Shown: piece by piece, positions 4,516 to 60,489 of the stretch
Layout of the letters: each line of letters starts with the position of its first letter
Position numbering within the stretch: position 1 is the first letter of the stretch
Source: an uncultured bacterium
GTDB taxonomy: Bacteria > Bacillota > Clostridia > Lachnospirales > Lachnospiraceae
Assembly: GCA_947381965.1 (NCBI GenBank)
Contig: CANCXX010000020.1
Span: forward strand, 1-64,000
Reading direction: 5' to 3'
Length of the DNA: 64,000 nucleotides
Notes under the pieces: model-generated
Databases searched by the model: none
What the model saw: only the letters and a program-made list of their open reading frames with translations
Told to the model about the DNA's origin: nothing
Made by a program: the position numbers and the translations under genes

Positions 4516-5724
4516 ATGAAAAAATTATTGATATTGGGTGGGGCTAATGCACAGGTTCCAGCAATAGTCCGTGCAAAGGAATTAGGGTATTATACAATAA
4601 CTTGTGATTATTTACCTGAAAATCCAGGACATGCATATTCAGATAAATATGAAAATATTAGTACTATTGATGAAAAAAAAGTGTTAAAGTTTGCTATTGA
4701 AGAAAAAATAGATGGAATAATTGCATATGCCTCAGACCCTTCTGCGCCAAGCGCTGCTTATGTAAGTGAGAAATTAAACTTAGCAGGTGCATCATATAAC
4801 ATAACTAAAATTTTTTGTGAAAAGGACTTATTTAGACAATTCCAAAAGAAAAATGGATTTATTACACCTTGGTTTTGGGTAATTAGAAGTCAGAAAGAAT
4901 TAGATAGTATTAGAGGGAAAATACAATTTCCATGCATAGTAAAGCCAGTTGATTTATCTGGAAGTAAGGGAGTTCATCTTCTTTATAGAGAGGAGGAATT
5001 GGACGTAGGAGTTGAAGACGCAATGACATTATCACGTTGTAAAAGGGTAATTATTGAGCAATATATAGAAACTCCATATTTTCAACTGCATGGAGATGGC
5101 ATTGTATTTAATGGAACCCTTCAATTCCTGGAGCTGGGGGACCAAAGATTTCATAATTCAGTTCCCATTGGTTCGTCATTGCCTTCACAGATTAACCCAT
5201 CGATTATGGCACTGGTAAAGGAACAAGTAGCAAAGCTGATAAAAGCAAGTAAATTTGATTGTGGTGGTATTAATGTAGAAGTCAGAGTCTCAAAAACAAA
5301 TGAAATTTATATTATTGAGATAGGACCGAGAACAGGAGGAAATTATATCCCTCAATTGATACAAGCGGCGACAGGGTTTGATGAAATGACAACGTCGCTG
5401 AAGTTGGCTATGGGCGAGGCATGTAGTTATATCTTTAAGAACAAGAAGAACTATTGCTTTCAATATATTGTAGGAAGTGAACGGGGGGGAATCTTCAAAG
5501 AGCTTTTTATTGATGATTATATGAAAAAGAAAGTAATGCAGAAATATGTGCATAAGTTAGAGGGAGATTATGTTGAAGATTACGAAAACAGTAATGGAGT
5601 GGTAGGAGTTGTTATACTGAAATTTAGCAATTTTCAGGAAATGGAAGATGATATTAAAAGCATTAAAACGCATATAAAGGTAATTATTAAGGAGGAGACA
5701 AGTGAAAAACAAATCAGTTGTTAG
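4516..5724 (+). CDS. ATP-grasp domain ligase
   Basis: A 402-residue ATP-grasp enzyme. The N-terminal Rossmann-like part starts MKKLLILGGANAQVPAIVRA. The ATP-grasp fold shows FPCIVKPVDLSGSKGVHLL (about 140-158), IIEQYIETP, and the metal-binding EIGPRTGGNYIPQLI near residue 270. Such enzymes join a carboxylate, via an acyl phosphate, to an amine, often making peptide or amide bonds. Start ATG at 4516 after TGAGGAG. A G7 run (5483-5489, R323-G325) is in frame here; loss or gain of one G would cause early termination. First gene of the right-hand operon; it overlaps the symporter. Substrates unknown. Confidence 0.85.
   Translation: MKKLLILGGANAQVPAIVRAKELGYYTITCDYLPENPGHAYSDKYENISTIDEKKVLKFAIEEKIDGIIAYASDPSAPSAAYVSEKLNLAGASYNITKIFCEKDLFRQFQKKNGFITPWFWVIRSQKELDSIRGKIQFPCIVKPVDLSGSKGVHLLYREEELDVGVEDAMTLSRCKRVIIEQYIETPYFQLHGDGIVFNGTLQFLELGDQRFHNSVPIGSSLPSQINPSIMALVKEQVAKLIKASKFDCGGINVEVRVSKTNEIYIIEIGPRTGGNYIPQLIQAATGFDEMTTSLKLAMGEACSYIFKNKKNYCFQYIVGSERGGIFKELFIDDYMKKKVMQKYVHKLEGDYVEDYENSNGVVGVVILKFSNFQEMEDDIKSIKTHIKVIIKEETSEKQISC
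5483..5489 (+). repeat. poly-G tract (G7) in ATP-grasp gene, in frame
   Basis: Seven consecutive G in the coding strand, preceded by C. It is read CGG GGG GGA and is in frame in this copy. At the short end for slippage. Confidence 0.6.
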
Positions 5725-6895
5725 TATTATAAGTGCACTAATTATAAGTGTAATTGTGGGAATCTTTCTACAGGGAAATATTGATATTGCAAACATGTTT
5801 CAGCCATTAGGTACTATTTATGTTAATTTGATTAAAATGATTATGGTACCGATGGTATTTTCGTCATTAATTCTTGGAATCACAAGTATTACTGATATAA
5901 AAAAAATTGGCAAAATGGGGGCTTTAACCGTCATATTTTTTCTTGCAACCACTGCAATGGCAATTGTCACAGGGCTTATATTATCTAACGTTTTTAAACC
6001 TGGTGAAGGAATATTGGTTGGAAATGCAGTTTATGAGGCAAAAAAAATGCCTGGTTTAGTAGACATTATTGTAGGCATATTTCCTGATAATATATTGGAG
6101 GCTATATTAAACACTAATATGCTGCAAATTATTTTTGTGACAATTACAATAGGAATTGCTATTGTGAAGATATATCCCAAAGGAAGAACATTGAAGGAGT
6201 GTATAGAAGACTTGTATGGAATCATAAGTATAGTGACAAAATGGGTAATGACATTAACTCCGTTAGGAATATTGGGGCTGATGATCCCAACAGTGGCACA
6301 AAATGGGATTGAAGTGTTACTTCCATTAGCGAAATTAATACTTGTATTTTATCTAGCTGTTATAATCCATGTGGGCGTTACATATTGTTTTTCTATTAAA
6401 TGTCTATCTGAGTTTTCAATAAAGATGTTTTTTAAGGGAATGCTCCCTGCACAGATAATTGCATTTGTATCTTGCAGCTCAGCCGCGGCTTTGCCTATAT
6501 CTATACAGAGAATGCAGGATGAGTTAAAGGTATCTAAGGAAGTAAGCAGTTTTGTATTACCTTTGGGTGCAACTATAAATATGGATGGGAATGCTTTATA
6601 TCAGGGAATCGTAGCCTTGTTTGTTGCACAAGCGTATGGATTAGAACTAACATTGGCAATGCAGGTCATAGTTGTTTTAACTGGTACACTGGCTTCAATT
6701 GGTGCAGCTGGGGTGCCAGGCGCAGGTATGATAGTCTTGAGTACAGTTTTAATTTCTGTTGGGTTGCCAATTGATGGTATTGCACTTGTAGCTGGAATAG
6801 ACAGAATTTTAGATATGGGAAGAACGTTTACAAATGTTACGGGAGATGCGGTAACTGCCATAATTATTGAGAAAGTTTTAAAAAAGACAAAATAA
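5702..6895 (+). CDS. dicarboxylate/amino acid:cation symporter (SLC1/DAACS family)
   Basis: A 397-residue membrane transporter. Diagnostic motifs are the serine-rich SCSSAAALPISIQRM hairpin, GATINMDGNALYQG, and the C-terminal DRILDMGRTFTNVTGDA substrate/sodium site. These identify the glutamate/aspartate/dicarboxylate symporter family, with eight membrane segments and two hairpins. The start is GTG at 5702, chosen because GGAGGAG lies at 5691-5697; the gene overlaps the ATP-grasp gene by 23 bases. Its coupling to a ligase suggests it imports the amino acid or dicarboxylate that the ligase uses; this is inference. Confidence 0.9.
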   Translation: MKNKSVVSIISALIISVIVGIFLQGNIDIANMFQPLGTIYVNLIKMIMVPMVFSSLILGITSITDIKKIGKMGALTVIFFLATTAMAIVTGLILSNVFKPGEGILVGNAVYEAKKMPGLVDIIVGIFPDNILEAILNTNMLQIIFVTITIGIAIVKIYPKGRTLKECIEDLYGIISIVTKWVMTLTPLGILGLMIPTVAQNGIEVLLPLAKLILVFYLAVIIHVGVTYCFSIKCLSEFSIKMFFKGMLPAQIIAFVSCSSAAALPISIQRMQDELKVSKEVSSFVLPLGATINMDGNALYQGIVALFVAQAYGLELTLAMQVIVVLTGTLASIGAAGVPGAGMIVLSTVLISVGLPIDGIALVAGIDRILDMGRTFTNVTGDAVTAIIIEKVLKKTK

Positions 6896-6991
6896 ATAAT
6901 AGGATATAAATGTTTCATAAAATAAAACGGAAGAGATAAAATAGTTTTAATGTTAACTGGGTGAAAGAATATTTGAGAGGATAAAAGAAAT

Positions 6992-7456: not shown

Positions 7457-7488
7457 GCGCTGAAATATTCATCTGTTTTTATCATGGA

Positions 7489-10705: not shown

Positions 10706-10801
10706 TTGCCAGATATTTAAAATAATGATAATATAAATTTAATAGCTTAAATAAGAAAGGAAAAAAGATAGAATACTCTCCCCCAGTTTAATGGGGGGGG
10801 G
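10706..10801 (+). promoter_or_regulatory. candidate leader of the glycosyltransferase gene, with C5/G9 hairpin
   Basis: A possible promoter TTGCCA (10706-10711) - 17 bases - TAATAT (10729-10734) precedes a leader containing CCCCC (10780-10784), AGTTTAAT, then nine G (10793-10801). The C and G runs can pair as a short hairpin whose stability would change with the G count. The glycosyltransferase ATG is at 10826. A weak promoter call; the C/G pairing is visible. Confidence 0.35.
10793..10801 (+). repeat. poly-G tract (G9), intergenic leader
   Basis: Nine consecutive G followed by TATT, 24 bases before the glycosyltransferase ATG. The ATG that overlaps the first G opens only a short reading frame at any tract length, so any effect would be on leader structure or spacing. 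Confidence 0.85.
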
Positions 10802-10825
10802 TATTTTGTGATTATAAAGTAAAAT

Positions 10826-11860: not shown

Positions 11861-11864
11861 GCGG

Positions 11865-14886: not shown

Positions 14887-15654
14887 ATGCTTACAGGGAA
14901 AACGGCCATAATTACAGGGGCAAACAGGGGGATTGGATTAGCGACAGTCGAAGTTTTTGCGGAGCAGGGGGCTGCTATTTGGGCATGTGCACGTAAACAG
15001 TCTGATGAATTTGAGTATAAGTTAAGGGAAATAGCAAATAGCAATGCTGTTTCAATTACTCCTGTCTATTTTGATGTAACAGAAGAGATAGCAGTTAAAG
15101 ACACAGTTAAGATGATAGGAAAGAACTCAAAATCTATAGATATACTGGTAAACAATGCTGGCATATCTATGGAAAGACTTTTCAGTATGACATCTGTCAA
15201 AATGATTCGGGAAGCAATGGAAGTAAATTTTTTGTCGCAAATGTTTTTGTCCCAACTTATATCAAGATACATGATGAAGGCTAAATATGGAAGTATTGTT
15301 AATGTTGCCTCTGTGGCAGGAATGGAAAGTGAACAAGGTGGTATTGCTTATGGGAGCAGCAAAGCAGCTGTAATTTTTTCAACCAGAACAATGGCGCTTG
15401 AATTAGGTTCATATGGGATAAGAGTAAATTCTGTTTCTCCGGGCTTCATTGAGACAGATATGTGGAAGGGACGTAGCAAAGAAGTAAAAGAGAAGATTTT
15501 GAGCGAAACACCACTTGGCCGACAAGGAACACCAAGGGAAGTGGCAAATGCTATACTATTTCTTGCTTCGGATATGTCATCCTATATTACAAGACAAAAT
15601 ATTGTGATAGATGGCGGACGAAAGAGTGGGGGGGGGCTGAGAGAGTTAGTATAA
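14887..15654 (+). CDS. FabG-like short-chain dehydrogenase/reductase with poly-G tail
   Basis: A 255-residue SDR. TGANRGIG is the NAD(P) glycine motif, NNAG follows, and the catalytic Ser-Tyr-Lys set is in NVASVAGM and AYGSSKAAV. The sequence closely resembles 3-oxoacyl-ACP reductases. The usual C-terminal DGG is followed by KS, three Gly codons made of exactly nine G (15628-15636) and LRELV. Changing the tract by one base alters only the tail: a stop right after the glycines with G8, or about sixteen different residues with G10. It probably works with the FabZ-like enzyme. Confidence 0.85.
   Translation: MLTGKTAIITGANRGIGLATVEVFAEQGAAIWACARKQSDEFEYKLREIANSNAVSITPVYFDVTEEIAVKDTVKMIGKNSKSIDILVNNAGISMERLFSMTSVKMIREAMEVNFLSQMFLSQLISRYMMKAKYGSIVNVASVAGMESEQGGIAYGSSKAAVIFSTRTMALELGSYGIRVNSVSPGFIETDMWKGRSKEVKEKILSETPLGRQGTPREVANAILFLASDMSSYITRQNIVIDGGRKSGGGLRELV
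15628..15636 (+). repeat. poly-G tract (G9) in SDR C-terminal tail
   Basis: Nine G encoding Gly248-250, only six codons before the stop. Predicted to vary the tail rather than switch the enzyme off. Confidence 0.85.
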
Positions 15655-15705: not shown

Positions 15706-17518
15706 ATGAATGTATTATTGGTAATGCCTAAAACAGGATATTTGTGGGATGAATGGTCAACACCTCCAATTGGGATAGCATATGTATCTTCATATTTGAA
15801 AGCTAATCAGATAAATGTATATACGATAAACATGAATTTAGAAGATAACAGCGTTTATGATGTGTTAGAGAAAAATATCAAAAAATATGATATTGAGATA
15901 CTGGGAACAGGTGAATTAGTGGTAAATTATGAGAAGATTCAGGAAATTGCAAGAGCGGCAAAGGCGATTAAACCAGAAATAAAGATTTGGATCGGGGGGG
16001 GGGCTTGTTACCAATAGCCCCTACGAGGCAATGGACTTGATTCCGGAAGCTGATTTCGGGATGATAGGAGAAGGAGAAGTCACTTCAGTAGAATTGGTGA
16101 ATGCGTTGCAGAGTGCAGTAAAATGTAGTGAGAAAGAAATAAGAAAAATACCAGGGCTTATTGTAAGAAAAAGCGATGGAACACTATATTGCACCAGAAA
16201 AAGGGAAGACATAGAAAATCTTGATGCGTTACCATTCCCTGATTGGGAAGGGTTTCGTTTAGTTGAAACTTGCCTAAAGTATGCTAAAGAGGACAATAGT
16301 ATTGTTGCACCAATAGTATCTAGCAGATCTTGCCCTAATTCATGTACATTTTGCTCTAAAACAGGCGGAAAAAAATATCGGCAACGTTCATTAGAAAATA
16401 TCTTTCTTGAAATTAATGAACTAGTCAACAAGTATCATGTGAATAAGTTAAATTTTTCTGATGAATTGTTTGCAGAAAATCCGAATCGTTTGTTTCAGTT
16501 TTGTGACATGATTGAACCATACCATATATCTTATAGAGTGAGTATGCATATAGGGAAAAATTTATGTAAAGAGTTACTGTCAAGAATGTACGAAAGCGGC
16601 TGTAAAGTAATTTTTTATGGTTTGGAAAGTGCTGATAACAATGTATTAAAGAGTATGAGAAAGCATATAACAATAGATGACATTAGCAGGTGTTTGAGAG
16701 CGACCAAAGAAGCTGGAATAATAGCAGAGGGAAACTTTATATTTGGAGACCCGGCAGAAACAGAAGAAAGTGTACAAACTACACTGAACTGGATAAAAGA
16801 AAATTATATGTTAGGGGTCTTTGAGGTTGCTGCTATTAAGTTGTATCCAGGTTCGCAGCTTTATGATGATGCGGTAAGTAGTGGAAAAATAAAGAATCAA
16901 CTAAAATTTATTATGGATGGATGTCCATTAGTCAATGTTTCTGGTTTGTCCGAAGAAAGATATATAAGAATGGTTAATCAGGACTTGACAACAGTTCAAA
17001 AAATGAGATTAAGGCGTCAAGAGGGTTTAACATTAGAGAAAAAAGAAAAAGATATTGTTGGGAAATCAAAATGTTCCTGTTGCGGAAAGGAAATAAAATT
17101 TAAACTGAAAAACAGATCACAGGTTTTGAGAATGTATACAGAGCATTGTATGGACTGTGGCGCTCTGGAATATTTGAATTTATTTCCTGTTTATTATGAC
17201 AAGATTATATTACAAATGGAATATCTTATCAAAAATAAAAAAGTAGCAATATTTGGATGTGGAAATGTTTGGAAGATGTTTTATTCTATAGGGAATATTT
17301 TTCAGGAGTGTGAATATGTAATTATTGATGAAACGCCATTTCTGCAAAAGGAAGGATGGAATGGAAGAAAAGTATTTCCAGTGGGCGTATTAAATACAAT
17401 GGAAATAGATACAATGATTGTAATGCTAAGAACATCAAAGAAAGAAATACAGGAAAAATTAGAGAGTAAGTATAACATAAAAAATATAAATATTATTATG
17501 TGTTATGATTTGATGTAG
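15706..17518 (+). CDS. B12-binding radical SAM protein, phase-OFF by a G10 tract
   Basis: Read with one G fewer, this is a 603-residue protein. The N-terminal cobalamin-binding domain (LLVMPKTGYLWDEWSTPPIG to MIGEGE) is followed by a radical SAM domain with CPNSCTFC, then two CxxC pairs (CSCC, CMDC) and a C-terminal Rossmann-like domain (VAIFGCGNVWK). In this copy the ten G at 15994-16003 shift the frame and translation stops at TAG 16015-16017. G9 would give IWIGGGLVTNSPYEAM and full-length protein. Start ATG 15706 after GGAGGAG. B12-radical-SAM enzymes often methylate unactivated carbons; here a sugar or acyl chain is plausible. Confidence 0.85.
15994..16003 (+). repeat. poly-G tract (G10), out of frame
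   Basis: The longest G run in the window, inside the cobalamin-binding domain of the radical SAM gene. The upstream frame meets a stop 12 bases beyond it; the downstream frame is open for about 500 codons. Confidence 0.95.
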
Positions 17519-17595: not shown

Positions 17596-18633
17596 ATGAT
17601 AATAAAAAACGGGAGAAATATAATAAATGGTGGAGAGCCATATATTGTTGCAGAGCTAAATTCCAGTCATAATGGTAAAATTGAAACTGCAAAAGAAATG
17701 ATTGATGCTGCAAAAGATTGTGGATGTAACGCTGTAAAATTTCAGTCGTGGTCAGCAGAAACACTTTATTGCCGGGATTATTATGACCAAAATCCGATTT
17801 CAAAAAGAATGGTCAGCAGATTTTCACTTGATCCTATGGAGTTAATGGAATTGGCTGGTTATTGCAAGGAGTGTGGTATTGATTTTTCTTCTACTCCATA
17901 TTCTGAAGAAGAAGTAAATTTTTTGATAAATCAATGTAATGCACCTTTTGTTAAAATTGCATCTATGGATATCAATAATCTTCCTTTTTTGAGATATATT
18001 GCAAAAACAAATGTGCCAGTTATTTTATCAACAGGAATGGCAACAGTGGAAGAAATCGAAGCAGCTGTTGGTGAATTTGAAAAAGCAGGTAATACCAATA
18101 TCTGTATATTACATTGTGTATCTTTATATCCGGTAGAAACGCAATATGTTAATTTAAATAATATAGTTATGTTAAAGGAGAGATTCCCTAAGTATGCGGT
18201 AGGATATTCCGACCATACGATAGGAAATGAGGTAGCATATGCAGCCATTGGTCTAGGAGCGGCTCTTATTGAAAAGCATTTTACTCTTAATAGCAAAAGT
18301 TTTGGATGGGACAATCAAATGGCAGCAGAACCTGCAGATATGAGAGAAATGGTATTGGGATGCCACAAGGTATATAGAGCTTTGGGAAATTATGAGAGGA
18401 AACTTACATTAGACGAACTAGCTCAAAGAAAAAAAATGCGCAGAAGTATTGTAGCAGCAGTAGATATGACTATAGGACATAGAATTGAAGAGGGAGATCT
18501 TACTGCCAAACGTCCTGGAGAGGGGATACCAGTAAATGAGTACAAAGATATCATTGGAAGGAGTTTGAAAGTGGATATTCTAAAGGACAAATTGATTTTA
18601 GATGAGTATTTATGTGAGAGGGAAGAGGAATGA
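17596..18633 (+). CDS. neuB: NeuB-family nonulosonate synthase (first copy)
   Basis: A 345-residue NeuB-type synthase. The TIM-barrel half shows YIVAELNSSHNGKIETAKEM, AVKFQSW, STPYSEEEV, ILSTGMAT and GYSDHTIGNEVAYAA; the C-terminal SAF (antifreeze-like) domain shows RRSIVAAVDM and RPGEGIP. Such enzymes condense PEP with a 6-carbon amino sugar to give sialic, legionaminic or pseudaminic acid. Unlike the copy at 48813 it has no neuA or neuC beside it; its neighbours are LuxE and acyl genes. It overlaps luxE by 4 bases. The exact substrate cannot be told from sequence. Confidence 0.85.
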   Translation: MIIKNGRNIINGGEPYIVAELNSSHNGKIETAKEMIDAAKDCGCNAVKFQSWSAETLYCRDYYDQNPISKRMVSRFSLDPMELMELAGYCKECGIDFSSTPYSEEEVNFLINQCNAPFVKIASMDINNLPFLRYIAKTNVPVILSTGMATVEEIEAAVGEFEKAGNTNICILHCVSLYPVETQYVNLNNIVMLKERFPKYAVGYSDHTIGNEVAYAAIGLGAALIEKHFTLNSKSFGWDNQMAAEPADMREMVLGCHKVYRALGNYERKLTLDELAQRKKMRRSIVAAVDMTIGHRIEEGDLTAKRPGEGIPVNEYKDIIGRSLKVDILKDKLILDEYLCEREEE

Positions 18634-19706
18634 TTGAAGACTTTCATAAGCTGCCGCCTTATTCATTAGAGAAAGATGAGAAAGGACAATTATTACTGGG
18701 GGAACTAAATCAGTTAACTGAAAGGCATCGAACACAATGTGCTGAGTATGCTGCATATCTTGAGGCAATTGGATATACCGGAAAACAGGCCAAAACTTTG
18801 GATGAAATACCATTTGTACCAATTAGGATATTTAAAAAGATTAAATTAAAAAGTATTCCTGATGATAAGGTGTTTAAAATAATGATGTCCTCTGGGACAA
18901 GTGGGCAGGAACAATCAAAAATATATTTGGACAAGGAAACTGCAATACTCCAGCAAAAGGTTTTACTCCGTCTTCTTGGGGAATTTGTTGGATATAAACG
19001 ATTACCAATGCTTGTGGTTGATTCGCGTACGACAATAAGTGACAGACAGCTTTTTACTACAAGGGGGGCAACCATTATGGGACTAGATTTTATGGCAAAA
19101 AAAATGGTATTTGCACTCAAAGATAATATGGATTTGAATGTAGATGTTCTGATAGATTTTGTAAATACATATGGGAATGAAAAATTTCTTCTTTTTGGAT
19201 TTACATTTATGATATGGCAGCATCTTCTGGGTGAAATAGAGAGAAGAAATCTAAAAATTGATTTGTCTAATGGATATTTACTGACAGCTGGTGGCTGGAA
19301 GAAATTAAAAAATGAAGCTGTGTCAAATAAAGATTTTAAAAGGCGGTGCGAAGAACTTTGTAGGATTAAACATTATGTTGACCATTATGGTATGGCAGAA
19401 CAGACAGGATGTATATATGCAGAATGTGAATATGGACACCTGCATGCAAGTATTTATTCAGATATTATTATAAGAAGGTACAGGGATTTTTCAGTTTGCG
19501 AACGTGGAGAAAAAGGATTTATCCAAGTTTTGTCCAGCTTGGCGCATTCATATCCAGGGCATTCTATTTTGACAGAGGATGAAGGTGTTATTCTTGGTGA
19601 AGATGATTGTCCGTGTGGACGAAAGGGGAAATATATACAAGTAATTGGGAGAATGAAGAATGCTGAAATAAGGGGGTGCAGTGATACCTATGCAGCAAGT
19701 TTTTAG
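18630..19706 (+). CDS. luxE: LuxE-like acyl-protein synthetase (copy 1)
   Basis: A 358-residue LuxE-family adenylating enzyme. Seen: MMSSGTSGQEQSKIYLD (phosphate-binding loop, about 90-106), LFGFTFMIWQHLL, HYGMAEQTGCIYAECEYG, and the C-terminal RGCSDTY whose cysteine is placed like the acyl-accepting cysteine of LuxE. In luminescent bacteria LuxE activates a fatty acid and passes it to LuxC. It overlaps neuB by 4 and luxC by 26 bases, so a LuxE/LuxC complex is likely. About half identical by eye to the copy at 23830. Confidence 0.88.
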   Translation: MIEDFHKLPPYSLEKDEKGQLLLGELNQLTERHRTQCAEYAAYLEAIGYTGKQAKTLDEIPFVPIRIFKKIKLKSIPDDKVFKIMMSSGTSGQEQSKIYLDKETAILQQKVLLRLLGEFVGYKRLPMLVVDSRTTISDRQLFTTRGATIMGLDFMAKKMVFALKDNMDLNVDVLIDFVNTYGNEKFLLFGFTFMIWQHLLGEIERRNLKIDLSNGYLLTAGGWKKLKNEAVSNKDFKRRCEELCRIKHYVDHYGMAEQTGCIYAECEYGHLHASIYSDIIIRRYRDFSVCERGEKGFIQVLSSLAHSYPGHSILTEDEGVILGEDDCPCGRKGKYIQVIGRMKNAEIRGCSDTYAASF

Positions 19707-20886
19707 TAAAATAAACTTTCTTATTGGCAGTAGAAAAGTTCTTGAACAGATGGAAAACATAAAGGTTCTTCCCATATTTTCTTGTAAGGCATTAGATTTT
19801 TTTGACTGTCTTTCAAAAAAATTGATGAGCAATAGTAAAGCAAATGATTATCCGGATGTGATTGCATATGCTTTTTGGATTAGAAGAGCATCCCTGAAAA
19901 GTGCAGGTATTCAGTATAATGCAGAAGGACAGAAAGTAGGAAGAGGAGTTGCATTTCAAATCGCACCATCAAATATTCCTGTTCAGTTTGCAGTATCTAT
20001 GACATATGCTCTTATAGCTGGAAATGCTTCAATTGTGCGAATATCTAATAAGAAATTCGTACAGACAGATATTATTTGTGAGGCTATTTGCGAGATACTA
20101 CAGGACACATACCCTGAAATGGCATCGTATATTTGTATTATCCAATATGATTATAATGATGAAATAACTCAGGCATTAACAGATATATGTGATATCCGCA
20201 TGATTTGGGGTGGTAACCATACAATAGAAGCATTACGTAAAGTTATTATAAAGCCAAGGTGCATAGATCTTGGGTTTGCTGATCGGTATTCTATAGCTGT
20301 TATAGACTCTGATGATTATTTAAAAGAAGATATCTGTTTGGTTGCAAACGCCTTTTATAATGACACATATTTCTCAGACCAAAATGCATGTAGTTCCCCA
20401 AGGTTAGTGATATGGACAGGAAATAAAATATTAAAAGCAAAAGAAATATTTTGGAAGGCATTGGGGGAGATTGTATCAAAGAAATATCTGATGGATCCGA
20501 TTTGCAGTTCTGAGAAGCTGCTGAAAACAGCAATTTGTGCGATCTTGTATCCGGGAATCAGAGAAGTAAAGAAAGATAATCTACTTGTAAGGGTAGAATT
20601 GCCATTTTTATATGATAACATTATGGATTTAAAAGGAAACAGTGGCTATTTTTTTGAATGTAATATTTATAATTTGCAGGATATTGTTCCGATTATGAAA
20701 AAAGACTGCCAGACAATTACATATATAGGAGATAATATAGAAGATGCACTCCGCAAAATTATATATGAAAATGGAGTAAAAGGGATTGACAGAATTGTTC
20801 CTGTTGGACATGCAGCTGATATTACATTTGTATGGGATGGCTTGGATTTACCAAATGTGCTATCACGTCAAATAGGGAATTTGTAA
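19681..20886 (+). CDS. luxC: LuxC-like acyl-CoA/acyl-protein reductase (copy 1)
   Basis: A 401-residue LuxC-family reductase, related to aldehyde dehydrogenases. Seen: QIAPSNIPVQFAVSM, LIAGNASIVRIS (NADP-binding region), RMIWGGNHTIEALR, and FSDQNACSSPRLVIW carrying the probable acyl-accepting Cys. It would reduce the acyl group delivered by LuxE to an aldehyde. The start is GTG 19681 or ATG 19690; AGGGGG at 19671 is close to the first and distant from the second. The ACP gene follows 40 bases later. Confidence 0.88.
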   Translation: MIPMQQVFSKINFLIGSRKVLEQMENIKVLPIFSCKALDFFDCLSKKLMSNSKANDYPDVIAYAFWIRRASLKSAGIQYNAEGQKVGRGVAFQIAPSNIPVQFAVSMTYALIAGNASIVRISNKKFVQTDIICEAICEILQDTYPEMASYICIIQYDYNDEITQALTDICDIRMIWGGNHTIEALRKVIIKPRCIDLGFADRYSIAVIDSDDYLKEDICLVANAFYNDTYFSDQNACSSPRLVIWTGNKILKAKEIFWKALGEIVSKKYLMDPICSSEKLLKTAICAILYPGIREVKKDNLLVRVELPFLYDNIMDLKGNSGYFFECNIYNLQDIVPIMKKDCQTITYIGDNIEDALRKIIYENGVKGIDRIVPVGHAADITFVWDGLDLPNVLSRQIGNL

Positions 20887-20926
20887 ATTAAAAATTAAAA
20901 ATTAGAAATTATAGGAGGATTTAAAA

Positions 20927-21166: not shown

Positions 21167-21236
21167 TGCGATTCAAATTTTTTTTTAAATATGTGAAAAT
21201 GATATAAGAGTAAAATATACAGGAGAGAAGTAAAGG

Positions 21237-22335: not shown

Positions 22336-22370
22336 CCTGTGTAGATTGCTGCATGTTAGGAGCATACGGA

Positions 22371-34961: not shown

Positions 34962-34975
34962 GGAGATGTAAAATT

Positions 34976-37503: not shown

Positions 37504-37515
37504 GGGACTCTGATG

Positions 37516-38560: not shown

Positions 38561-38667
38561 ATGAACAGTAAAATAGCTGTTAAATCGTATGTAAATGATG
38601 AAAATATGACTTTTGTAAATAACATTAAGGCACAGTTGGGAAAATAATTAATAAGAAGGAGAAGAAA

Positions 38668-44759: not shown

Positions 44760-46459
44760 GGAAGAAATTAGGCCTGATAAGTATACTTATTTTTATGACA
44801 ATAATATGGGGGGGGTATGAAGTCAGAGAAAGCAGGACTACACAGTTTACGGCAGAGGATAATGAACTTTCTCTTGTGTTAAAAATAGGTAATCAGCAGA
44901 AAGAAATCTTTCCATGGCACGAAAAAAACGAACAGATATATTATTTCTTTTTACCTTCCTGTGTGTTGGAAGATAAAATTTATTTTGACCAGATTTCTGA
45001 CGAAGATATTTCAATTGATGAAAAAAAAATATCAAAATATAACTGCTTTTCATTTGAACAGGGGAAGATATATAAGTTGAGTGTAAACGGCTTGTTATAT
45101 CAGGCAGTCTTTATGAGAGGAAAAAATATTCCAACTTTTTTTGTAGAAACCAAAAGCGGCAATATGAAATATATTCATTCAGATAAAGGAAATATGGAAA
45201 CAGGAAATATCACTGTCGTAGATGCAAGCCGGCATATACAATATAGTGGAAAGCTTGATGAAATATCCGGAAGAGGCAATAGTACATGGCTGCCCTTTAA
45301 GAAGTCATATTCCATTAAATTGCCGGAAAAACATCCAATTTGCGGACTAAACTCCGGGAGTAAATGGAAGTTACTCTCTTTATATTTTGAACATGATAAA
45401 ATGCACAGCAAAATAATATTTGATATGTCTGCATTGGCAGGTCTAAATTATACTCCGGAATGCACATGGATAAATTTATACTGTAATGGTTCATATCAGG
45501 GGTTATATTTGCTTGCAGAATCTGTGGATGCCCATTTAGAAGAAGATGGCTGTCTTTTAGAAAAGGGAATACCATCCCAATTACAGGAAGATGAGGTTTT
45601 CTTTATAACAAAGAAAATGGAATATTTGTTTAAAATGAAGCAGAAGGCTGGGGAAAATGTCGAGGAGATTGCAGGTTTTATACAGGAAGTGGAAAATCTG
45701 CTGTCAGAGGGAAATTCACAATTTAAAGAGTATTTAGACATAGATTCTATTGCCAGCCAGTTTTTGATTGACAAAATTGTAATGGAAGCTGATGCAATGA
45801 TGATGAGTACATTTTTTTATATCAGAAATGGTGTAATTTATGCCGGTCCTATGTGGGACTATGACAGGGCCGTTGGGGAAATTCTGCCGGATTATGAGAT
45901 GCCGGTTGAAGGGGCGCCAAATGGGATGTCGGGATGGTATATGGTACTATATAATGATATGGATTTTTATGAGTCAATGATTAATACATACAAAAAGCTG
46001 CTGCCTTATTTTGAAGAGTTGTTAAATGGGGGAATAGATTATTATGCAGAGTGGATTGAATCATCTGTGGAAATGGACAATATATTGATGAAAAAGTGTT
46101 CCACACCCAATGAAACAAGCAGTTATACTGCATATGAAAGTTATGTGAAATACCTAAAGTATTTTTTGGCAAACAGACTCAATTTCTTAAATAAAATATG
46201 GGAGATAGATGGATATGAGTTTAAAGCACCAGCAGAGGAAGGGAAATATCACCAGGTTGCTCTTGCCAAAGAAGATGGAAGTATTATTGAAACCAGGAGC
46301 ATTATGGACGGAGAATGCCTTACCGGGCTGCCGGAATCAGATAAAAATTTTGACGGATGGTACTTTAGTGGAAGAAAAGGATGTATTGATAAAATATATA
46401 ACGATAAGATTCCAATATATGAAGATTTAGTTTTGTATGCAAAGCGGCAAAATCAGTGA
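44756..46459 (+). CDS. CotH-kinase family protein with poly-G tract in the signal region
   Basis: A 567-residue CotH-type protein. A hydrophobic signal/anchor (residues 6-19) is followed by an extracellular region with ISGRGNSTWLPFKKSYSIKL, TWINLYCNGSYQGLYLLAES and GPMWDYDRAVGE, the CotH kinase fold. CotH proteins phosphorylate secreted proteins. Eight G at 44808-44815 encode Trp18-Gly20 at the end of the signal segment and are in frame here. G9 would give an immediate stop (GTA TGA) and G7 a stop after about 40 codons, so the gene can be switched cleanly. A repeat-like C-terminal region (DKNFDGWYFSGRKGC) may be a cell-wall-type domain. Confidence 0.85.
   Translation: MRKKLGLISILIFMTIIWGGYEVRESRTTQFTAEDNELSLVLKIGNQQKEIFPWHEKNEQIYYFFLPSCVLEDKIYFDQISDEDISIDEKKISKYNCFSFEQGKIYKLSVNGLLYQAVFMRGKNIPTFFVETKSGNMKYIHSDKGNMETGNITVVDASRHIQYSGKLDEISGRGNSTWLPFKKSYSIKLPEKHPICGLNSGSKWKLLSLYFEHDKMHSKIIFDMSALAGLNYTPECTWINLYCNGSYQGLYLLAESVDAHLEEDGCLLEKGIPSQLQEDEVFFITKKMEYLFKMKQKAGENVEEIAGFIQEVENLLSEGNSQFKEYLDIDSIASQFLIDKIVMEADAMMMSTFFYIRNGVIYAGPMWDYDRAVGEILPDYEMPVEGAPNGMSGWYMVLYNDMDFYESMINTYKKLLPYFEELLNGGIDYYAEWIESSVEMDNILMKKCSTPNETSSYTAYESYVKYLKYFLANRLNFLNKIWEIDGYEFKAPAEEGKYHQVALAKEDGSIIETRSIMDGECLTGLPESDKNFDGWYFSGRKGCIDKIYNDKIPIYEDLVLYAKRQNQ
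44808..44815 (+). repeat. poly-G tract (G8) in cotH-like gene, in frame
   Basis: Eight G followed by TATG, 17 codons from the start. The position gives total loss of the protein when slipped. Confidence 0.9.
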
Positions 46460-47198: not shown

Positions 47199-47200
47199 TA

Positions 47201-47881
47201 ATGTCAGTAAAAGATGTAATTAAAAGTAGCGTGTATAATAGCCTTGGGGGGGGTACTAACCTTACAGCAAAGGGAATTTTATTTATTTTAGCAGCAGCAT
47301 GTCTGATTGGGCTTTATGTCTATGCCGTTTATAAACTTACCAGCAAGTCGGCTTTTTATTCAAAAGATCTTAATGTTACCATAGCAGGGCTGCCTGTCAT
47401 TATAGCGGCGATTATGGTAGCCATGCAGTCAAATCTGCTGGTATCTCTTGGAATGGTTGGCGCATTGTCAATTGTGCGTTTTCGCAGTGCAATAAAAAAT
47501 CCGCTGGATTTATTGTATCTTTTCTGGTCTATAAGCGCAGGAATCATCTGTGGCGTTGGACTTACAATGCTGGCAATTATTTTGTGCATAATTATGACAG
47601 TTATGCTGTTGATTTTAGAGATGATACCCAATTCAAAAGCGCCATTGCTTCTAATAATCAGAACCGGATATGAAAATGCTAACTGGGAGGAAATTGTAAA
47701 AACAATAAGGAAGCATTCAAAATATATGAAAGAAAAGTCCCGGAATATTAGAAATGAAGAGACAGAAGCTATATTTGAAATAAATACAAGAATGCAGAAT
47801 GCGCTTTTACAGGATTTAAAACAGAATACTCAAATTAAGCAGATTAACTTATTGTCCCATGATGGTGAATATCGGATATAA
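47201..47881 (+). CDS. DUF4956 membrane protein with poly-G tract
   Basis: A 226-residue protein with three to four membrane segments (about 25-45, 57-80, 105-140) and a cytoplasmic C-terminal domain. LVSLGMVGALSIVRFRSAIK and NPLDLLYLFWSI are typical DUF4956 stretches. Start ATG 47201, two bases after the VTC stop. Codons 16-18 are GGG GGG GGT within a G8 run (47246-47253), in frame here. G9 gives GGG TAC TAA, an immediate stop; G7 stops within about 15 codons. Function unknown; presumably acts with the VTC protein. Confidence 0.85.
   Translation: MSVKDVIKSSVYNSLGGGTNLTAKGILFILAAACLIGLYVYAVYKLTSKSAFYSKDLNVTIAGLPVIIAAIMVAMQSNLLVSLGMVGALSIVRFRSAIKNPLDLLYLFWSISAGIICGVGLTMLAIILCIIMTVMLLILEMIPNSKAPLLLIIRTGYENANWEEIVKTIRKHSKYMKEKSRNIRNEETEAIFEINTRMQNALLQDLKQNTQIKQINLLSHDGEYRI
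47246..47253 (+). repeat. poly-G tract (G8) in DUF4956 gene, in frame
   Basis: Eight G followed by TACT, 15 codons from the start. Both single-base changes lead to early stops. Confidence 0.9.
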
Positions 47882-48104
47882 GAGGTATAGACAGTGAGAA
47901 AAAGGGCAGGCTTACAGATATGCCTAATTTGTTGTACCTTCCTCATAAATAGGTGGATAAAAAAATTTTATCTGATATAATGAAAAAGACAGGTGTTTAT
48001 AGTAAAGTCATAAGAACGCCAGTGATATATAAAGGGCAATACAGAAGTTTTTTATACAGCTGATAGATGAAGTTTTAGAAGTTGTGGAGTGTGGAGGCAG
48101 AGTT

Positions 48105-48785
48105 ATGAGATACCTAGTGGTTATACCAGCGAGAGGCGGTTCAAAGGGAATTCCTCATAAAAATATATATCCCTTAAATGGAAAACCGTTGCTGTTATAT
48201 TCCCTTGAAATGATTACCCAGGTAGATTTTGAAGGGGATGTGGCAGTCAGCACGGATTCAGATAAAATTAAGCAGGTTGCACTTACAGTGCCAGGAATAG
48301 AAGTGGTTGACAGACCTGCAGATATTTCGGGGGACAAGGCCAGTACGGAGTCGGCCCTGCTCCATGCCCTGGAGGTTATGGAAGAAAGAAAGCAGTGCAA
48401 ATATGACGCAGTAGTCACTTTGCAGGCAACTTCGCCCCTTAGAAGGGCAGAGACGGTCAGCGCCTGCTTTAAACGCTATGAGGCGGACCGGGAAAAGTAT
48501 GACGCCCTTCTTACCTTAACAGAAACACGTATTGATTACTGGATAAAAGAAGGAGAAGACCATTATAGAAGACTGTATCCTGACGCCCCAAGAAGGCGGC
48601 AGGACAGGGAGCCTATATACATTGAAAACAGCGCCGTGTATATTACAGACAGTAAATCTTTGAGAGAAACAAATTCTGTACTGGGGCAATGTGTCAATGG
48701 CTATGTGATCCCGGAAACAGATGGTGTGGATATTAATGAGCCTGTTGATATTTTAGTTGCAGAAGAGCTGTTAAAGAGTATTTAA
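48105..48785 (+). CDS. neuA: CMP-nonulosonate (acylneuraminate) cytidylyltransferase
   Basis: A 226-residue NeuA-family enzyme: VIPARGGSKGIPHKNIYPLN is the CTP-binding signature, then VAVSTDSDKI, VTLQATSPLR and IYIENSAVYIT. It activates a nonulosonic acid with CMP. Start ATG 48105 after TGGAGG. It heads a neuA-neuB-neuC-CBS cluster. Whether the sugar is sialic or legionaminic acid cannot be fixed; the neighbouring CBS protein recalls the legionaminate loci of Campylobacter. The 220 bases before it hold only short broken frames. Confidence 0.87.
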   Translation: MRYLVVIPARGGSKGIPHKNIYPLNGKPLLLYSLEMITQVDFEGDVAVSTDSDKIKQVALTVPGIEVVDRPADISGDKASTESALLHALEVMEERKQCKYDAVVTLQATSPLRRAETVSACFKRYEADREKYDALLTLTETRIDYWIKEGEDHYRRLYPDAPRRRQDREPIYIENSAVYITDSKSLRETNSVLGQCVNGYVIPETDGVDINEPVDILVAEELLKSI

Positions 48786-48812
48786 GAAAAGTGCGCAAAA
48801 GGAGAGTGCAGC

Positions 48813-49850
48813 ATGAGAACGATAAAAATTGAAAACAGAACAATTGGTGAAGGATGTCCGGTATTTGTGATAGCGGAAGGCTGTGATAACCATATGGGAG
48901 ATATGGAGACGGCGAAAGAAATGTGTCGTCTGGCGAAACTGGCAGGAGCAGACTGCATTAAATTCCAGCATCATCTGCCAGATGAGGAGATGTTGAAAGA
49001 TGTGCCTATGACATCAAATTTTGATATCCCGCTTTACGAGTTCTTAAAACTTCATGCTCTGACACTGGACCAGCATGTGGAATTAATGAATTATTGTAAA
49101 GAAATTGGAATTATGTATCTTTGCACACCTTTTAGCTTAAAGGCAGCCTATGAATTAAATGAAATAGGAGTTTCAGCTTTTAAAATTGGGTCCGGTGAGA
49201 TGACAGATATACCAACCCTGCAGGCGATTGCCAGACTGGGCAAGCCAATGATTGTATCCACGGGCATGTGTACCATGGAGGAAATCACCCGGACCTATGA
49301 CGCGCTGGCAGAGAGCGGTGTTCCCTTTGCATTTACAAACTGCCTTTCTGAATATCCCCCCAAGTATGAAGATGTGAATCTGGGGGTTATTGCCCGTATG
49401 AAGGAAAGCTTTCCCAAAGCAGTGATTGGACATTCTGATCATACGCCGGATTTATATACCTGCTATGGGGCAGTTGCATTGGGGGCAAGCATTATTGAAA
49501 AACATGTAATCATAAGCAAACAGACACCGGGACCGGACCAGACCGTATCAATAGACTTTGAAGATTTGTATCATTTAGTGGATGGCATCAGAAAAATTGA
49601 ACTGGCATCCGGTACGGAAAAAGTGGTTCATAAAGATGAAAAGGGCATCAGAGAGTGGGCGTTTCGAAGTATTGTATCGCTAAGGCCCATTAAAGCGGGG
49701 GAGGTAATTACCCAGGATATGATCTGGTCCAAACGTCCGGGAACAGGTATTCCCTCAAGGCAGATGGACGAAGTCATTGGACGCACTGCCATAAGGGATA
49801 TTGAAGAGAATGTTTTGATTAAGTGGGAAGATTTATCTGGTAAGGAATGA
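48813..49850 (+). CDS. neuB: NeuB-family nonulosonate synthase (second copy)
   Basis: A 345-residue synthase: VIAEGCDNHMGDMETAKEMC, CIKFQHHLPDEEML, FKIGSGEMTDIPTL, STGMCTMEEI and GHSDHTPDLYTCYGA in the barrel, and a C-terminal SAF domain with RSIVSLRPIKAGE and KRPGTGIP. It condenses PEP with the sugar released by the following NeuC-like enzyme. Clearly a different subgroup from the copy at 17596. Start ATG 48813 after AAGGAGAG, 27 bases beyond neuA. Confidence 0.88.
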   Translation: MRTIKIENRTIGEGCPVFVIAEGCDNHMGDMETAKEMCRLAKLAGADCIKFQHHLPDEEMLKDVPMTSNFDIPLYEFLKLHALTLDQHVELMNYCKEIGIMYLCTPFSLKAAYELNEIGVSAFKIGSGEMTDIPTLQAIARLGKPMIVSTGMCTMEEITRTYDALAESGVPFAFTNCLSEYPPKYEDVNLGVIARMKESFPKAVIGHSDHTPDLYTCYGAVALGASIIEKHVIISKQTPGPDQTVSIDFEDLYHLVDGIRKIELASGTEKVVHKDEKGIREWAFRSIVSLRPIKAGEVITQDMIWSKRPGTGIPSRQMDEVIGRTAIRDIEENVLIKWEDLSGKE

Positions 49851-49918
49851 AAGAAACTTCCAAACAATCTATTGGTGCAGTATCACAAGCAAAGCTTGCG
49901 ATATGCAGGGGTATAAGT

Positions 49919-51061
49919 ATGAAAAAGATTATGATTATCACTGGTTCCAGAGGTGAGTGGGGGTATATCCGCCCGATTTTAAAGCTTATAAAGGAAAGAG
50001 AGGATGTTGAAGCGGTGCTGGTTGTTACTAACATGCACCTGCTTCCCGCTTATGGTAATTCTTATAAAGAGATTGAAAATGATGGGTTTCATATTGATTA
50101 TAAAGTGCATATGTCTCTGGACGGCTACAGTCATGTGACGCAGGCCAAATCCCTGGGACTGTTCCTCTCTTCCATGCCGGATATTATTGAAAATGAAAAA
50201 CCAAACTGGATATTACTGGCAGGCGATCGGGGAGAACAGCTGATGGGAGCCATTGCCGGTGCATATACTTATACGCCGGTGGCACATATTCAGGCTGGTG
50301 AGGTGTCAGGAAATATTGACAATATGACCCGGCATGCAATAGGAAAACTGGTACATCTTCACTTTGCCTCCAATCAGGATGCGGCGGATCGTCTGATTAA
50401 ATTGGGGGAGGAAGCCTTCCGTGTGCATAATGTTGGCGCACCCCAGATTGACGAGATGGTTTCCGCACAGTATACGCCTTTGCCAGATATAGAAGAAAAA
50501 CTATGCGTCAGTCTGAAAGAGGGATATCTGCTTGGAGTAATGCACCCGGTTACAGAGGAGGCAGACAAGGCAGAAAAGCAGGCGGAGATTTTCATTAAAG
50601 CGCTGAATCATTTCTCCTTCCCCAAAGTCATTATTCTGCCCAATAATGATGCAGGGTCTAACGGAGTAAAAAGGGCCATTCAGGAATACCGGCAGGGTGA
50701 ATACTATATGTATGCGAATCTGAAAAGAGAAGATTACCTGGGACTTTTAAAAAATACAAGGTGCATTGTGGGAAATTCCAGCTCAGGGCTTTTGGAAGCG
50801 CCAACCTTCAAAGTGCCGGCAGTAAATATTGGCAGAAGACAGAATATGCGCTTTAGAGGAATTAATGTGATTGATGTGCCCTTTGAAAAAGAGATGGTCA
50901 TTGAAGCCATCAACAAGGCAATAAGCAGAGAATTTAGAAATTATTTAAAAAAAGAATGCGTCAATCCTTACGGAGACGGACATTCATCAGAAAGAATTTT
51001 GGATTTACTGATAAATACACCTGTTGATCAGAAGCTGCTGGTAAAAAAATTAACCTATTAG
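49919..51061 (+). CDS. neuC: hydrolysing UDP/GDP-sugar 2-epimerase (NeuC/LegG-like)
   Basis: A 380-residue UDP-GlcNAc-2-epimerase-fold protein: IITGSRGEWGYIRPILK, ILLAGDRGEQLMGAIAGAYT, VAHIQAGEVSGNIDN, and IVGNSSSGLLEAPTFKVPAV. The hydrolysing type releases ManNAc or 6-deoxy-Man-diNAc for NeuB. Start ATG 49919 gives the usual N-terminus, although an in-frame ATG at 49847 overlapping neuB exists; the ribosome site CAGGGG is modest. A short hairpin (AAGCAAAGCTT) precedes it. Confidence 0.85.
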   Translation: MKKIMIITGSRGEWGYIRPILKLIKEREDVEAVLVVTNMHLLPAYGNSYKEIENDGFHIDYKVHMSLDGYSHVTQAKSLGLFLSSMPDIIENEKPNWILLAGDRGEQLMGAIAGAYTYTPVAHIQAGEVSGNIDNMTRHAIGKLVHLHFASNQDAADRLIKLGEEAFRVHNVGAPQIDEMVSAQYTPLPDIEEKLCVSLKEGYLLGVMHPVTEEADKAEKQAEIFIKALNHFSFPKVIILPNNDAGSNGVKRAIQEYRQGEYYMYANLKREDYLGLLKNTRCIVGNSSSGLLEAPTFKVPAVNIGRRQNMRFRGINVIDVPFEKEMVIEAINKAISREFRNYLKKECVNPYGDGHSSERILDLLINTPVDQKLLVKKLTY

Positions 51062-56856: not shown

Positions 56857-57192
56857 CTATGAACAATAAAGCCAAAGATACTTATTGTCCATACACGCTT
56901 CTTGCAAATAATATTTTTTATTATGGTACTCTAACATTTCTGCTTCCCTGAATGAAGAAATAATACACTCAGGAATATAATTTTCATCTTCAAATTGGGA
57001 ACTCTCATTATTTACCATAATATGATTTATATGAATATCCGAACCTTCCAATCGCTGCCATATAGGATATTCATATGTATTGTTGCCTAAAACCAGCCCG
57101 ATTTTCTTTGTTTCTTCAGGTATCATATCACACACCTCTTTATACTCATCATAAAGATAATTTCCAGCAAAATACCCGCGGAACCTGTCCAA
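56857..57192 (-). pseudogene. C-terminal fragment of a membrane glycosyltransferase
   Basis: An open 111-codon stretch, KIGLVLGNNTYEYPIWQRLEG followed by HINHIMVNNESSQFED and PECIISS, resembles the soluble C-terminal domain of GT39/RgtA-type membrane glycosyltransferases. The membrane part is absent and the fragment abuts the truncated MBOAT gene on the other strand, so it marks a rearrangement junction at about 57.2 kb. Confidence 0.55.
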
Positions 57193-57261
57193 TGAGCCGG
57201 TTTGCGAAATCTGCCAGTGAAAATCTACTAATGGGAAACTGCCAGACCAAAAAAAAATATT

Positions 57262-58346: not shown

Positions 58347-58357
58347 AGGTTAGGATT

Positions 58358-59391: not shown

Positions 59392-59897
59392 AGGTAAAAG
59401 AAATAATTAATGAAATGATAAAAAACGTTAAGGAAGGATATGAAATTGGAAAGGCAATATCACATACAACAAATTTTATAGAATGGTCGGAGCTTGTCAG
59501 CGATTCCCGATTTACAATATTTGCAGTCGGAAGTGAAGGATTACCAACATTGATGTCTTTAGTTGAAAGGGAGGCATTTGCTAAAATGGGTTTGGATGAA
59601 ATACAGAATGAAAAATCCTATATTAAAGTGATACAGGCAGGAAGTGTTTTATATACAAATAGCGGTGAGGAAGAGAAAAAGTATGAAGGGATTGCAGGTA
59701 CAGAACAAGGTGAAATTAGCTCAAACTTTATAATAGAGAATTCAAATGAGGAATTATCTATTAAAATTGATGGTGAGGAATTTAGCAGACAGGATGAGGG
59801 GATCAATGTTGTTATCTATGAAAATGATTATCATTATGTTGTTGATTCAGTAACATTGAAATGTGATGAGGTGGGAAAGATACAAATAATTAGATGA
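59370..59897 (+). CDS. interleukin-like EMT-inducer (ILEI/FAM3-like) domain protein
   Basis: A 175-residue protein with no signal peptide. The C-terminal stretch SIKIDGEEFSRQDEGINVVI, then VVDSVTLKCD (about 130-165), matches the ILEI/FAM3 domain pattern of an N-G/G-x-E followed by GxNVVVYD and VVDSV. The N-terminal half is helical and charged. In bacteria such domains turn up next to glycan and methyltransferase genes with unknown function. It overlaps the SGNH gene by 22 bases. A binding role for sugar or a partner is possible. Confidence 0.6.
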   Translation: MFKDEELEVKEIINEMIKNVKEGYEIGKAISHTTNFIEWSELVSDSRFTIFAVGSEGLPTLMSLVEREAFAKMGLDEIQNEKSYIKVIQAGSVLYTNSGEEEKKYEGIAGTEQGEISSNFIIENSNEELSIKIDGEEFSRQDEGINVVIYENDYHYVVDSVTLKCDEVGKIQIIR

Positions 59898-59916
59898 AAA
59901 GAGATGATAACAAATT

Positions 59917-60489
59917 ATGAAACTACGAAGACTAAAGGAAAAAGATGCAACTGGTATGCTGGAATGGATGCACGACCCTGAATTTCAAAAAAATTTTCAG
60001 ATTGATATGATAAATAGAAGAATGGAAGATATAATAGAATTTATTAATCAATCACAGACTGATAGGATAGAGGGACAAAGTATACATTATGCAATTGTTG
60101 ACGAAGAAGATGAGTATTTGGGGACGATAAGCTTAAAGGATATAGATTTATTGGCACGTAAGGCAGAATATGCAATCAGCCTTAGGAAAATGGCGCAGGG
60201 AAAAGGAATAGCAACAGAGGCCACAAGGGAATTACTAAGAATTGCCTTTGATAAATTAGGTTTGGAAAGAGTATATTTGAATGTGCTGTCAGAAAACATA
60301 AATGCGATTCGTCTGTATGAGAAGTGTGGATTTGTATATGAAGGAGCATTTCGGAATCATTTATTTTTGAAGGGAGAGTATAGAACATTGAAATGGTATA
60401 GTATTTTAAAAAATGAGTATATGATGCAATTTGGGGGGGGGTATAAATCTAATTTATACAAAGACACTTCCAATAGTATCATATTATAA
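59917..60489 (+). CDS. GNAT acetyltransferase (RimJ/PseH-like) with poly-G tail
   Basis: A 190-residue GNAT. Seen: MLEWMHDPEFQKNFQ, GTISLKDIDLLARKAEYAIS, MAQGKGIATEATRELL (acetyl-CoA loop) and YLNVLSENINAIRLYEKCGF. It resembles RimJ/RimL and the PseH enzymes that N-acetylate nucleotide amino sugars. Codons 173-175 are nine G (60433-60441), in the last 18 residues. G10 gives a stop two codons later; G8 gives a longer tail that ends beside the next start. The catalytic domain ends before the tract, so slippage changes the tail and perhaps coupling to the next gene. Confidence 0.83.
   Translation: MKLRRLKEKDATGMLEWMHDPEFQKNFQIDMINRRMEDIIEFINQSQTDRIEGQSIHYAIVDEEDEYLGTISLKDIDLLARKAEYAISLRKMAQGKGIATEATRELLRIAFDKLGLERVYLNVLSENINAIRLYEKCGFVYEGAFRNHLFLKGEYRTLKWYSILKNEYMMQFGGGYKSNLYKDTSNSIIL
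60433..60441 (+). repeat. poly-G tract (G9) in GNAT C-terminal tail
   Basis: Nine G followed by TATA, after the end of the conserved GNAT fold. Confidence 0.9.

What the first reader, a model, noticed from the sequence alone, without database searches (positions are those of the whole stretch)
5483..60441. Ten G7-G10 tracts form a phase-variable contingency network in a Firmicute glycan locus
Seen directly: G runs of 7 to 10 at 5483, 10793, 15628, 15994, 21431, 35620, 38229, 44808, 47246 and 60433. Seven are at least 8 long. All are on the plus strand and I found no C run of 7 or more. If G is about one fifth of bases, a run of eight or more is expected well under once in 64 kb. Three tracts lie precisely where one gene is split into two overlapping frames, and three lie inside genes read in frame. 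From established knowledge, poly-G slippage drives phase variation of glycan genes in Campylobacter, Helicobacter and Neisseria; it is little described in gut Clostridia. Inference: each cell expresses one of many ON/OFF combinations, giving a diversified surface glycan.
Basis: partly seen in the sequence, partly recalled or inferred. Interest (0 to 1): 0.92.

Follow-up and report, generated by a model that had tools for sequence, protein, structure and literature searches.

The report
Poly-G switches in surface-sugar genes
A bacterium's surface-sugar gene cluster, and similar genes in its sister species, carry unusually long runs of G that sit where gaining or losing a G would turn a gene on or off, so this lineage very probably shuffles its surface the way some pathogens do.

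Summary
The ten G7-G10 runs are real, and the seven of 8 or more are far above chance: 7 of the genome's 25 G8+ tracts lie in this 1.5% of it (P about 6e-8). The locus encodes nonulosonate-type glycan enzymes. In the window, two G8+ tracts split genes that have unsplit homologues in sister species (B12/radical-SAM enzyme, membrane protein), two are in frame, two sit at C-termini, one is half of a conserved RNA hairpin. Of three G7 runs, one splits a methyltransferase gene, one lies in a decayed gene, one looks ordinary. Across 20 genomes, 30 G8+ tracts split genes and 35 are in frame, against 6 and 129 for A/T runs (P 4e-12); orthologous genes share a tract site with different lengths and frame states; five tracts sit in promoter spacers (0.05 expected). 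Unexpected: G8+ tracts are followed by TA in 53%, against 5-10% for shorter runs. Within-population length variation could not be tested. Known mechanism; multi-locus use in such a lineage was not found in my literature searches.

The parts
5483..5489 (+). G7 in frame in an ATP-grasp gene (4516-5724); probably an ordinary G run
   Evidence: 33 of 41 own G7 runs are followed by A, as this one
10793..10801 (+). G9, non-coding, in the 3' arm of an 18-bp hairpin, 24 nt upstream of a glycosyltransferase start (10826)
   Evidence: -28.8 kcal/mol, z -6.75; same 18-bp stem in paralogue L042 with changed sequence, z -5.29
15628..15636 (+). G9 at the C-terminus of a 3-oxoacyl-ACP-reductase-like SDR gene (14887-15654)
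15706..17518 (+). B12-binding radical SAM gene, split at the G10 tract 15994-16003: B12 domain upstream, radical SAM domain downstream in another frame
   Evidence: homologues in G021 run through the site in one frame: L200 whole (564 aa), L159 with a stop further on
15994..16003 (+). G10 tract at the split
17596..18633 (+). NeuB-family nonulosonate synthase 1
18630..20886 (+). LuxE-like and LuxC-like acyl genes (first pair; second pair 23791-26134)
21234..22335 (+). FkbM methyltransferase gene split at the G7 run 21431-21437: upstream piece in one frame, FkbM domain in another
34949..36338 (+). membrane-type protein (no Pfam family) split at the G9 tract 35620-35628
35620..35628 (+). G9 tract followed by TA
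37504..38600 (+). acyltransferase-3 remnant with several frame breaks; contains G7 38229-38235
44808..44815 (+). G8 in frame, N-terminal hydrophobic segment of CotH gene 44726-46459
47246..47253 (+). G8 in frame, N-terminus of DUF4956 gene 47156-47881, on a conserved Gly-Gly-Thr motif
48084..51061 (+). CMP-sugar cytidylyltransferase, NeuB 2, UDP-GlcNAc 2-epimerase
60433..60441 (+). G9 near the C-terminus (about residue 172 of 190) of a GNAT acetyltransferase (59917-60489)

Best explanation
The G8+ tracts of this window are contingency loci: hypermutable poly-G tracts whose length changes by slippage during DNA replication and so switch surface-glycan genes. In coding tracts a length change moves the downstream reading frame; in C-terminal tracts it swaps the tail; elsewhere in the genus tracts inside promoter spacers would change -35/-10 spacing. 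The assembly caught two window genes (B12/radical-SAM enzyme, membrane protein) out of frame and two (CotH, DUF4956) in frame. The system is genus-wide, with this nonulosonate locus its densest cluster in this genome. Shown: excess, clustering, gene classes, frame breaks at tracts, between-species differences in length and frame at shared sites, promoter placement. Inferred: slippage within a population, reversibility, altered glycans.
For: 7 of 25 own G8+ tracts in 64 kb, hump at G9. 127 G8+ tracts from own genome and 19 sister species: 30 split, 35 in-frame, 62 other on the G strand (5, 18, 104 when read on the C strand); A/T 8+ runs read on both strands: 6 split, 129 in-frame, 179 other; Fisher 4e-12, 3e-11 with both strands of G tracts counted, 7e-7 under my first, cruder rule. 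Same tract site in orthologues: FkbM gene G10 split in G009, G9 in frame in G014 (L075/L105, pieces 87% and 82% identical); MBOAT G11 split in G010, G9 in frame in G020 (L084/L112); secreted family with a G8-G10 tract after the signal peptide in 5 of 22 relatives, in frame in one (G8), out of frame in four (G9 x3, G10). The window's membrane protein has homologues in 3 of 36 other genus genomes, all with G7-G8 runs: open through in G002 and G007, split in G021. Five promoter-spacer tracts against 0.05 expected. Tract genes hit glycosyltransferase, acyltransferase, MBOAT and methyltransferase families most; no such family reaches two hits among 50 control ORFs.
Against: No reads and no second strain: within-species length variation is untested. 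Two pattern scans of viral contigs and one search of phage records found no other allele; the own genome has no second copy of the 15.5-16.3 kb stretch. MutL is present in 35 of 37 genus genomes, own included, so slippage is not boosted by loss of MutL. Two same-site orthologue pairs (L052/L104, L113/L115) have the same length and are split in both species, and the secreted family is out of frame in 4 of 5, which fits decay as well as switching. The in-frame class is inflated by chance open frames: L127/L219 was counted in-frame although its signal peptide is in another frame. CotH/DUF4956 relatives mostly lack tracts (19 of 24 examined loci have no G7+ on either strand). 47246 has a protein-level reason, 10793 an RNA-level one. 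The promoter and TA patterns were seen first and tested afterwards on the same tracts.
Confidence: 0.82

Rival explanations
1. Slippage happens in transcription (or on the ribosome) at fixed-length DNA tracts, so every cell makes a mixture of products; no DNA-level switching.
For: Frame-split genes at G9-G10 tracts would also be rescued in part by polymerase slippage; two orthologue pairs are split at the same site with the same length in two species.
Against: Between-species length differences at the same site and promoter-spacer tracts, where only DNA length matters.
Confidence: 0.08
2. The split genes are decaying pseudogenes, or assembly indels at homopolymers; the tracts are incidental.
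For: 38229 lies in a gene with several breaks; the genome is a draft with 7.3% estimated contamination; two orthologue pairs are split in both species; the secreted family is out of frame in 4 of 5.
Against: A/T runs of 8 or more split genes in 6 of 135 split-or-in-frame cases, against 30 of 65 for G; flanking halves keep open frames and homology; glycan-type families are the commonest hits of tract genes; TA signature.
Confidence: 0.06
3. The G runs are kept for other reasons: Gly-rich motifs, RNA hairpins, start-region signals.
For: DUF4956 Gly-Gly-Thr motif; two B12/radical-SAM homologues have Gly-Gly-Gly at the site; hairpin at 10793.
Against: The B12/radical-SAM and DUF4956 homologues looked at code these glycines without a G8+ run; does not explain splits, promoter spacers, or the hump at G9.
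Confidence: 0.04

Closest known systems
Poly-G contingency loci of Helicobacter canadensis (PMC2823697, passages seen)
   Same: Homopolymeric tracts in promoters (5), 5' coding positions (16) and C-termini (8) of 29 coding regions, 8 of 21 and 5 of 8 in or near one cluster that includes a 3-oxoacyl-ACP reductase; the same three placements are seen here in the genus
   Different: There read data showed length variation at all 29; here only assemblies. Different lineage
Bifidobacterium breve pilus G-tracts (PMC9187656, passages seen)
   Same: G-tract splits a surface gene into two ORFs in a gut Gram-positive; replication slippage shown by maximum depth sequencing
   Different: Two pilus genes studied there, rather than 25 tracts many of which lie in glycan genes
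Neisseria/Campylobacter phasomes (recalled; search listings only)
   Same: Poly-G in glycan genes; promoter-spacer tracts of the porA type (recalled)
   Different: Those are validated by reads and phenotypes in pathogens (recalled)

Membership tests
SSR (poly-G) phase-variable contingency loci | Tracts longer and more numerous than chance | tested here: met
SSR (poly-G) phase-variable contingency loci | Placed where a length change alters frame or promoter spacing | tested here: met
   Window: two G8+ tracts split genes, two in frame near the N-terminus; genus: 30 split, 35 in-frame, 5 promoter-spacer of 127
SSR (poly-G) phase-variable contingency loci | Homologous tracts differ in length with a change of frame state | tested here: met
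   Between species only, in other genes of the genus; for the window's membrane protein, tracts at nearby but not identical positions
SSR (poly-G) phase-variable contingency loci | Length heterogeneity within one population | not testable with these tools
   no reads; no second strain of the species found
SSR (poly-G) phase-variable contingency loci | Reversible phenotype switching | not testable with these tools
   needs culture
SSR (poly-G) phase-variable contingency loci | Bias to surface/glycan genes | tested here: met
   95 tract-gene pieces against 50 of 100 sampled control ORFs, which come from contigs without G8+; only the 25 commonest families of each set are listed, so single control hits may be hidden
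Rho-independent terminator (for 10793) | GC hairpin followed directly by a T run | tested here: not met
   hairpin present, followed by ATTATAAAG
Organism: Firmicute gut Clostridium | Named taxonomy | tested here: inconclusive
   genome unnamed; genome-contig scan gave only a distant hit; one flagellin gene is 76-78% like three human-faecal contigs

The most novel reading that the evidence does not exclude
The tracts are made or maintained by something that recognises sequence. G8+ tracts end in TA in 67 of 127 cases against 5-10% for G3-G7 runs, in genes and outside them and in all three codon phases, and in 6 of 9 tracts of a genome from another family of the order. This would mean a directed poly-G mutator or a fixed slippage-promoting context rather than chance repeats under selection.
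Probability: 0.12. Interest if true: 0.86.

Novelty: new member of a known kind. Interest (0 to 1): 0.62.

Why it matters
It would also mean that one assembly of such a species cannot say which surface sugars it makes, which bears on phage, antibody and host binding (inference). The TA signature gives a sequence rule that can be tested in reporters.

Tried and rejected
Naming the organism: the genome-contig scan with the radical SAM half returned one distant deltaproteobacterial locus; GyrA against PDB and NeuB against plasmids were uninformative. Other alleles of the same species: none. Fold of the membrane protein homologue L250: mean pLDDT 44.5, no fold search made; no PDB sequence match; no BLASTP relation to the neighbouring DUF6056 gene. 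Loss of MutL as cause: present in 35 of 37. Campylobacter phages as control for the TA signature: only two G8+ tracts, neither followed by TA, too few. A first split/in-frame classifier counted short overhangs as in-frame (it gave only one split G8+ tract in the window) and gave G 20 split, 63 in-frame, A/T 4 and 144; I replaced it. The 400 kb comparison set lies on contigs free of G8+, so I dropped its lack of G8+ as evidence. L127/L219 was first taken as in frame; its signal peptide is in another frame. First reading of 10793 as a terminator: no T run. An element like the 10793 hairpin elsewhere in the own DNA that I held: only the paralogue L042 is convincing. Papers: no paper on multi-locus poly-G phase variation in Clostridia/Lachnospiraceae turned up (listings), and none on a flanking TA in the listing; these cover open-licence papers only, and I opened three (passages).
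Full report
Observation. The ten runs exist as described. The own genome has 25 distinct G8+ tracts, seven in the window and an eighth on the same contig; the chance of seven in this 1.5% is 6e-8. Exact counts run G7 41, G8 8, G9 14, G10 3: a hump at nine, not a decay. A 400-kb comparison set from 20 other contigs was taken from contigs that hold no G8+, so it serves only for shorter runs, A/T runs and control ORFs.

The locus. Pfam shows a sugar locus: two NeuB synthases, a CMP-sugar transferase and UDP-GlcNAc 2-epimerase, two pyruvyl transferases, WbqC, FdtA, DegT aminotransferase, glycosyltransferases, GtrII/GtrA, several acyltransferases, and two LuxE/LuxC pairs with FabA, MaoC, SDR and AMP-binding enzymes that suggest acyl decoration (inference). 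A CotH-VTC-DUF4956 operon lies in it. The genome has ten Flagellin_N hits, none on this contig, so flagellin is a possible acceptor (inference).

Tract by tract. 15994 (G10) separates the B12 domain from the radical SAM domain; two homologues in G021 run through the site in one frame with Gly-Gly-Gly and no G8+ run, one whole (L200, 564 aa) and one with a stop further on (L159). 35620 (G9) separates the halves of a membrane-type protein; of homologues in 3 of the 36 other genus genomes searched, two are open through (472 and 462 aa, with G8 and G7 runs in frame close to the site) and one is split at a G7 some 45 residues upstream. 21431 (G7) separates an upstream piece from the FkbM domain; this rests on the open frames and on the layout of relatives such as L105, since no homologue matched both pieces. 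44808 and 47246 (G8) are in frame; at 47246 three tract-free homologues have the same Gly-Gly-Thr, at 44808 the run lies in a hydrophobic segment where the homologues shown have no Gly pair. 15628 and 60433 (G9) are close to the C-termini. 10793 (G9) is non-coding: in one arm of an 18-bp stem upstream of a glycosyltransferase (-28.8 kcal/mol, z -6.75). The own paralogue, about 81% identical in DNA, keeps the 18-bp stem and 6-base loop with a different stem sequence and no G run. 5483 (G7) looks ordinary; 38229 (G7) is in a remnant.

The genus. Of 23 sister species first scanned, 19 have G9+ tracts and 4 none; 13 more genus genomes were used only in later protein and family searches. I fetched every listed G9+ site of the 19 (88 loci): 102 G8+ tracts, with 25 own making 127. 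These loci were chosen for holding G9+, so densities in them mean nothing; frame states do. With one rule for all runs, G8+ read on the G strand gave 30 split, 35 in-frame, 62 other; the same tracts read on the C strand 5, 18, 104. A8+/T8+ runs in the same loci, the window and the 400 kb, each read on both strands, gave 6 split, 129 in-frame, 179 other. Homopolymer assembly error should hit both kinds. Open frames are counted stop to stop, so some in-frame calls are chance (L127 is one).

Orthologous sites. FkbM gene: G10 split (G009), G9 in frame (G014). MBOAT gene: G11 split (G010), G9 in frame (G020). Secreted family: five of 22 relatives aligned near their N-terminus have a tract right after the signal peptide; in G021 (G8) the signal peptide is in frame with the rest, in own, G002 and G048 (G9) and G022 (G10) it is not; 17 have no tract. 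Against: L052/L104 and L113/L115 are split in both species at equal length. Families also recur with tracts at other positions: B12/radical SAM (window and L051, in frame), DUF4956 (window and L070, split), FkbM (window and L075/L105).

Promoters. Five tracts lie between a perfect TTGACA and a 5/6 or 6/6 TATAAT with 17-19 bases between (0.05 expected from 25,400 placements; the threshold was set after the pattern was noticed). They precede a large protein without a family above cut-off, two related solute-binding lipoproteins (so four independent cases at most), an SLH-domain protein and one unknown; a weaker candidate (L072) precedes a NeuD-like gene and NeuB. None of this strength is in the window.

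TA signature. After the tract comes TA in 67 of 127 (64 of 123 after dropping four tracts of orthologue sets), against 6.8% after G3 and 5-10% after G4-G7 (G7: 1 of 10). It holds for in-frame (19 of 35), split (17 of 30), other (31 of 62) and tracts without an open frame of 60 codons (10 of 28), and in all three codon phases of in-frame tracts (4 of 12, 8 of 13, 7 of 10). Five of the window's seven G8+ tracts have it. In other families of the order, 6 of 9 tracts of G033 have it (one between TTGACA and TATAAT, 14 bases apart, L266), and 1 of 12 in five other genomes, where several lie at contig ends in GC-rich sequence. Like the promoter pattern it was found by looking, and tested on the same tracts; only the other-family tracts are new data. 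I have no explanation; a stop-codon supply does not fit well, since TAT and TAC are nearly as frequent as TAA and TAG (30 against 37).

Function classes. 95 pieces of 65 tract genes were scanned in two sets of 48 and 47. Commonest: glycosyltransferase 2 (4 and 2), acyltransferase 3 (2 and 3), MBOAT (3 in the second set), methyltransferases (up to 2 and 4). Of 100 sampled control ORFs 50 were scanned; no glycan family reaches two hits there, apart from a nucleotidyl-transferase family (2) that can include sugar enzymes, and 60 of its 85 families are not listed.

Verdict. Mechanism class: poly-G slippage phase variation, probable from genome evidence alone, unproven in cells. What is new is the lineage, the number of loci and the TA context. 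In the literature passages seen, the closest are H. canadensis and B. breve pili.

Noticed in passing
L031-L135 and window, all G8+ tracts: G8+ tracts are followed by TA in 67 of 127 cases, against 5-10% for G3-G7 runs, in and outside genes; cause unknown.
   Followed up: partly
10768-10809: 18-bp RNA hairpin upstream of a glycosyltransferase, conserved in paralogue L042:1571-1612 with changed stem sequence.
   Followed up: partly
57075-58119: MBOAT gene whose open frames break at an A9 (57249) and a T8 (58096) run instead of a G tract.
   Followed up: no
L067, L068, L088, L094, L106, L266: G9 tracts between TTGACA and TATAAT-like boxes: candidate promoter switches, several for surface proteins.
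   Followed up: partly
L032:3962-3971: Own CotH paralogue on contig 5 carries a ten-base C run on its coding strand near the C-terminus, and a TAG inside the match.
   Followed up: no
12449-13249: IS110-type transposase remnant on the minus strand inside the glycan locus.
   Followed up: no
L038:37-5979: 1980-aa open frame just downstream of the window without any Pfam family.
   Followed up: no
18630-26134: Two LuxE/LuxC pairs flank an FkbM gene and an AMP-binding enzyme next to NeuB: possible acyl decoration of a nonulosonate glycan.
   Followed up: no
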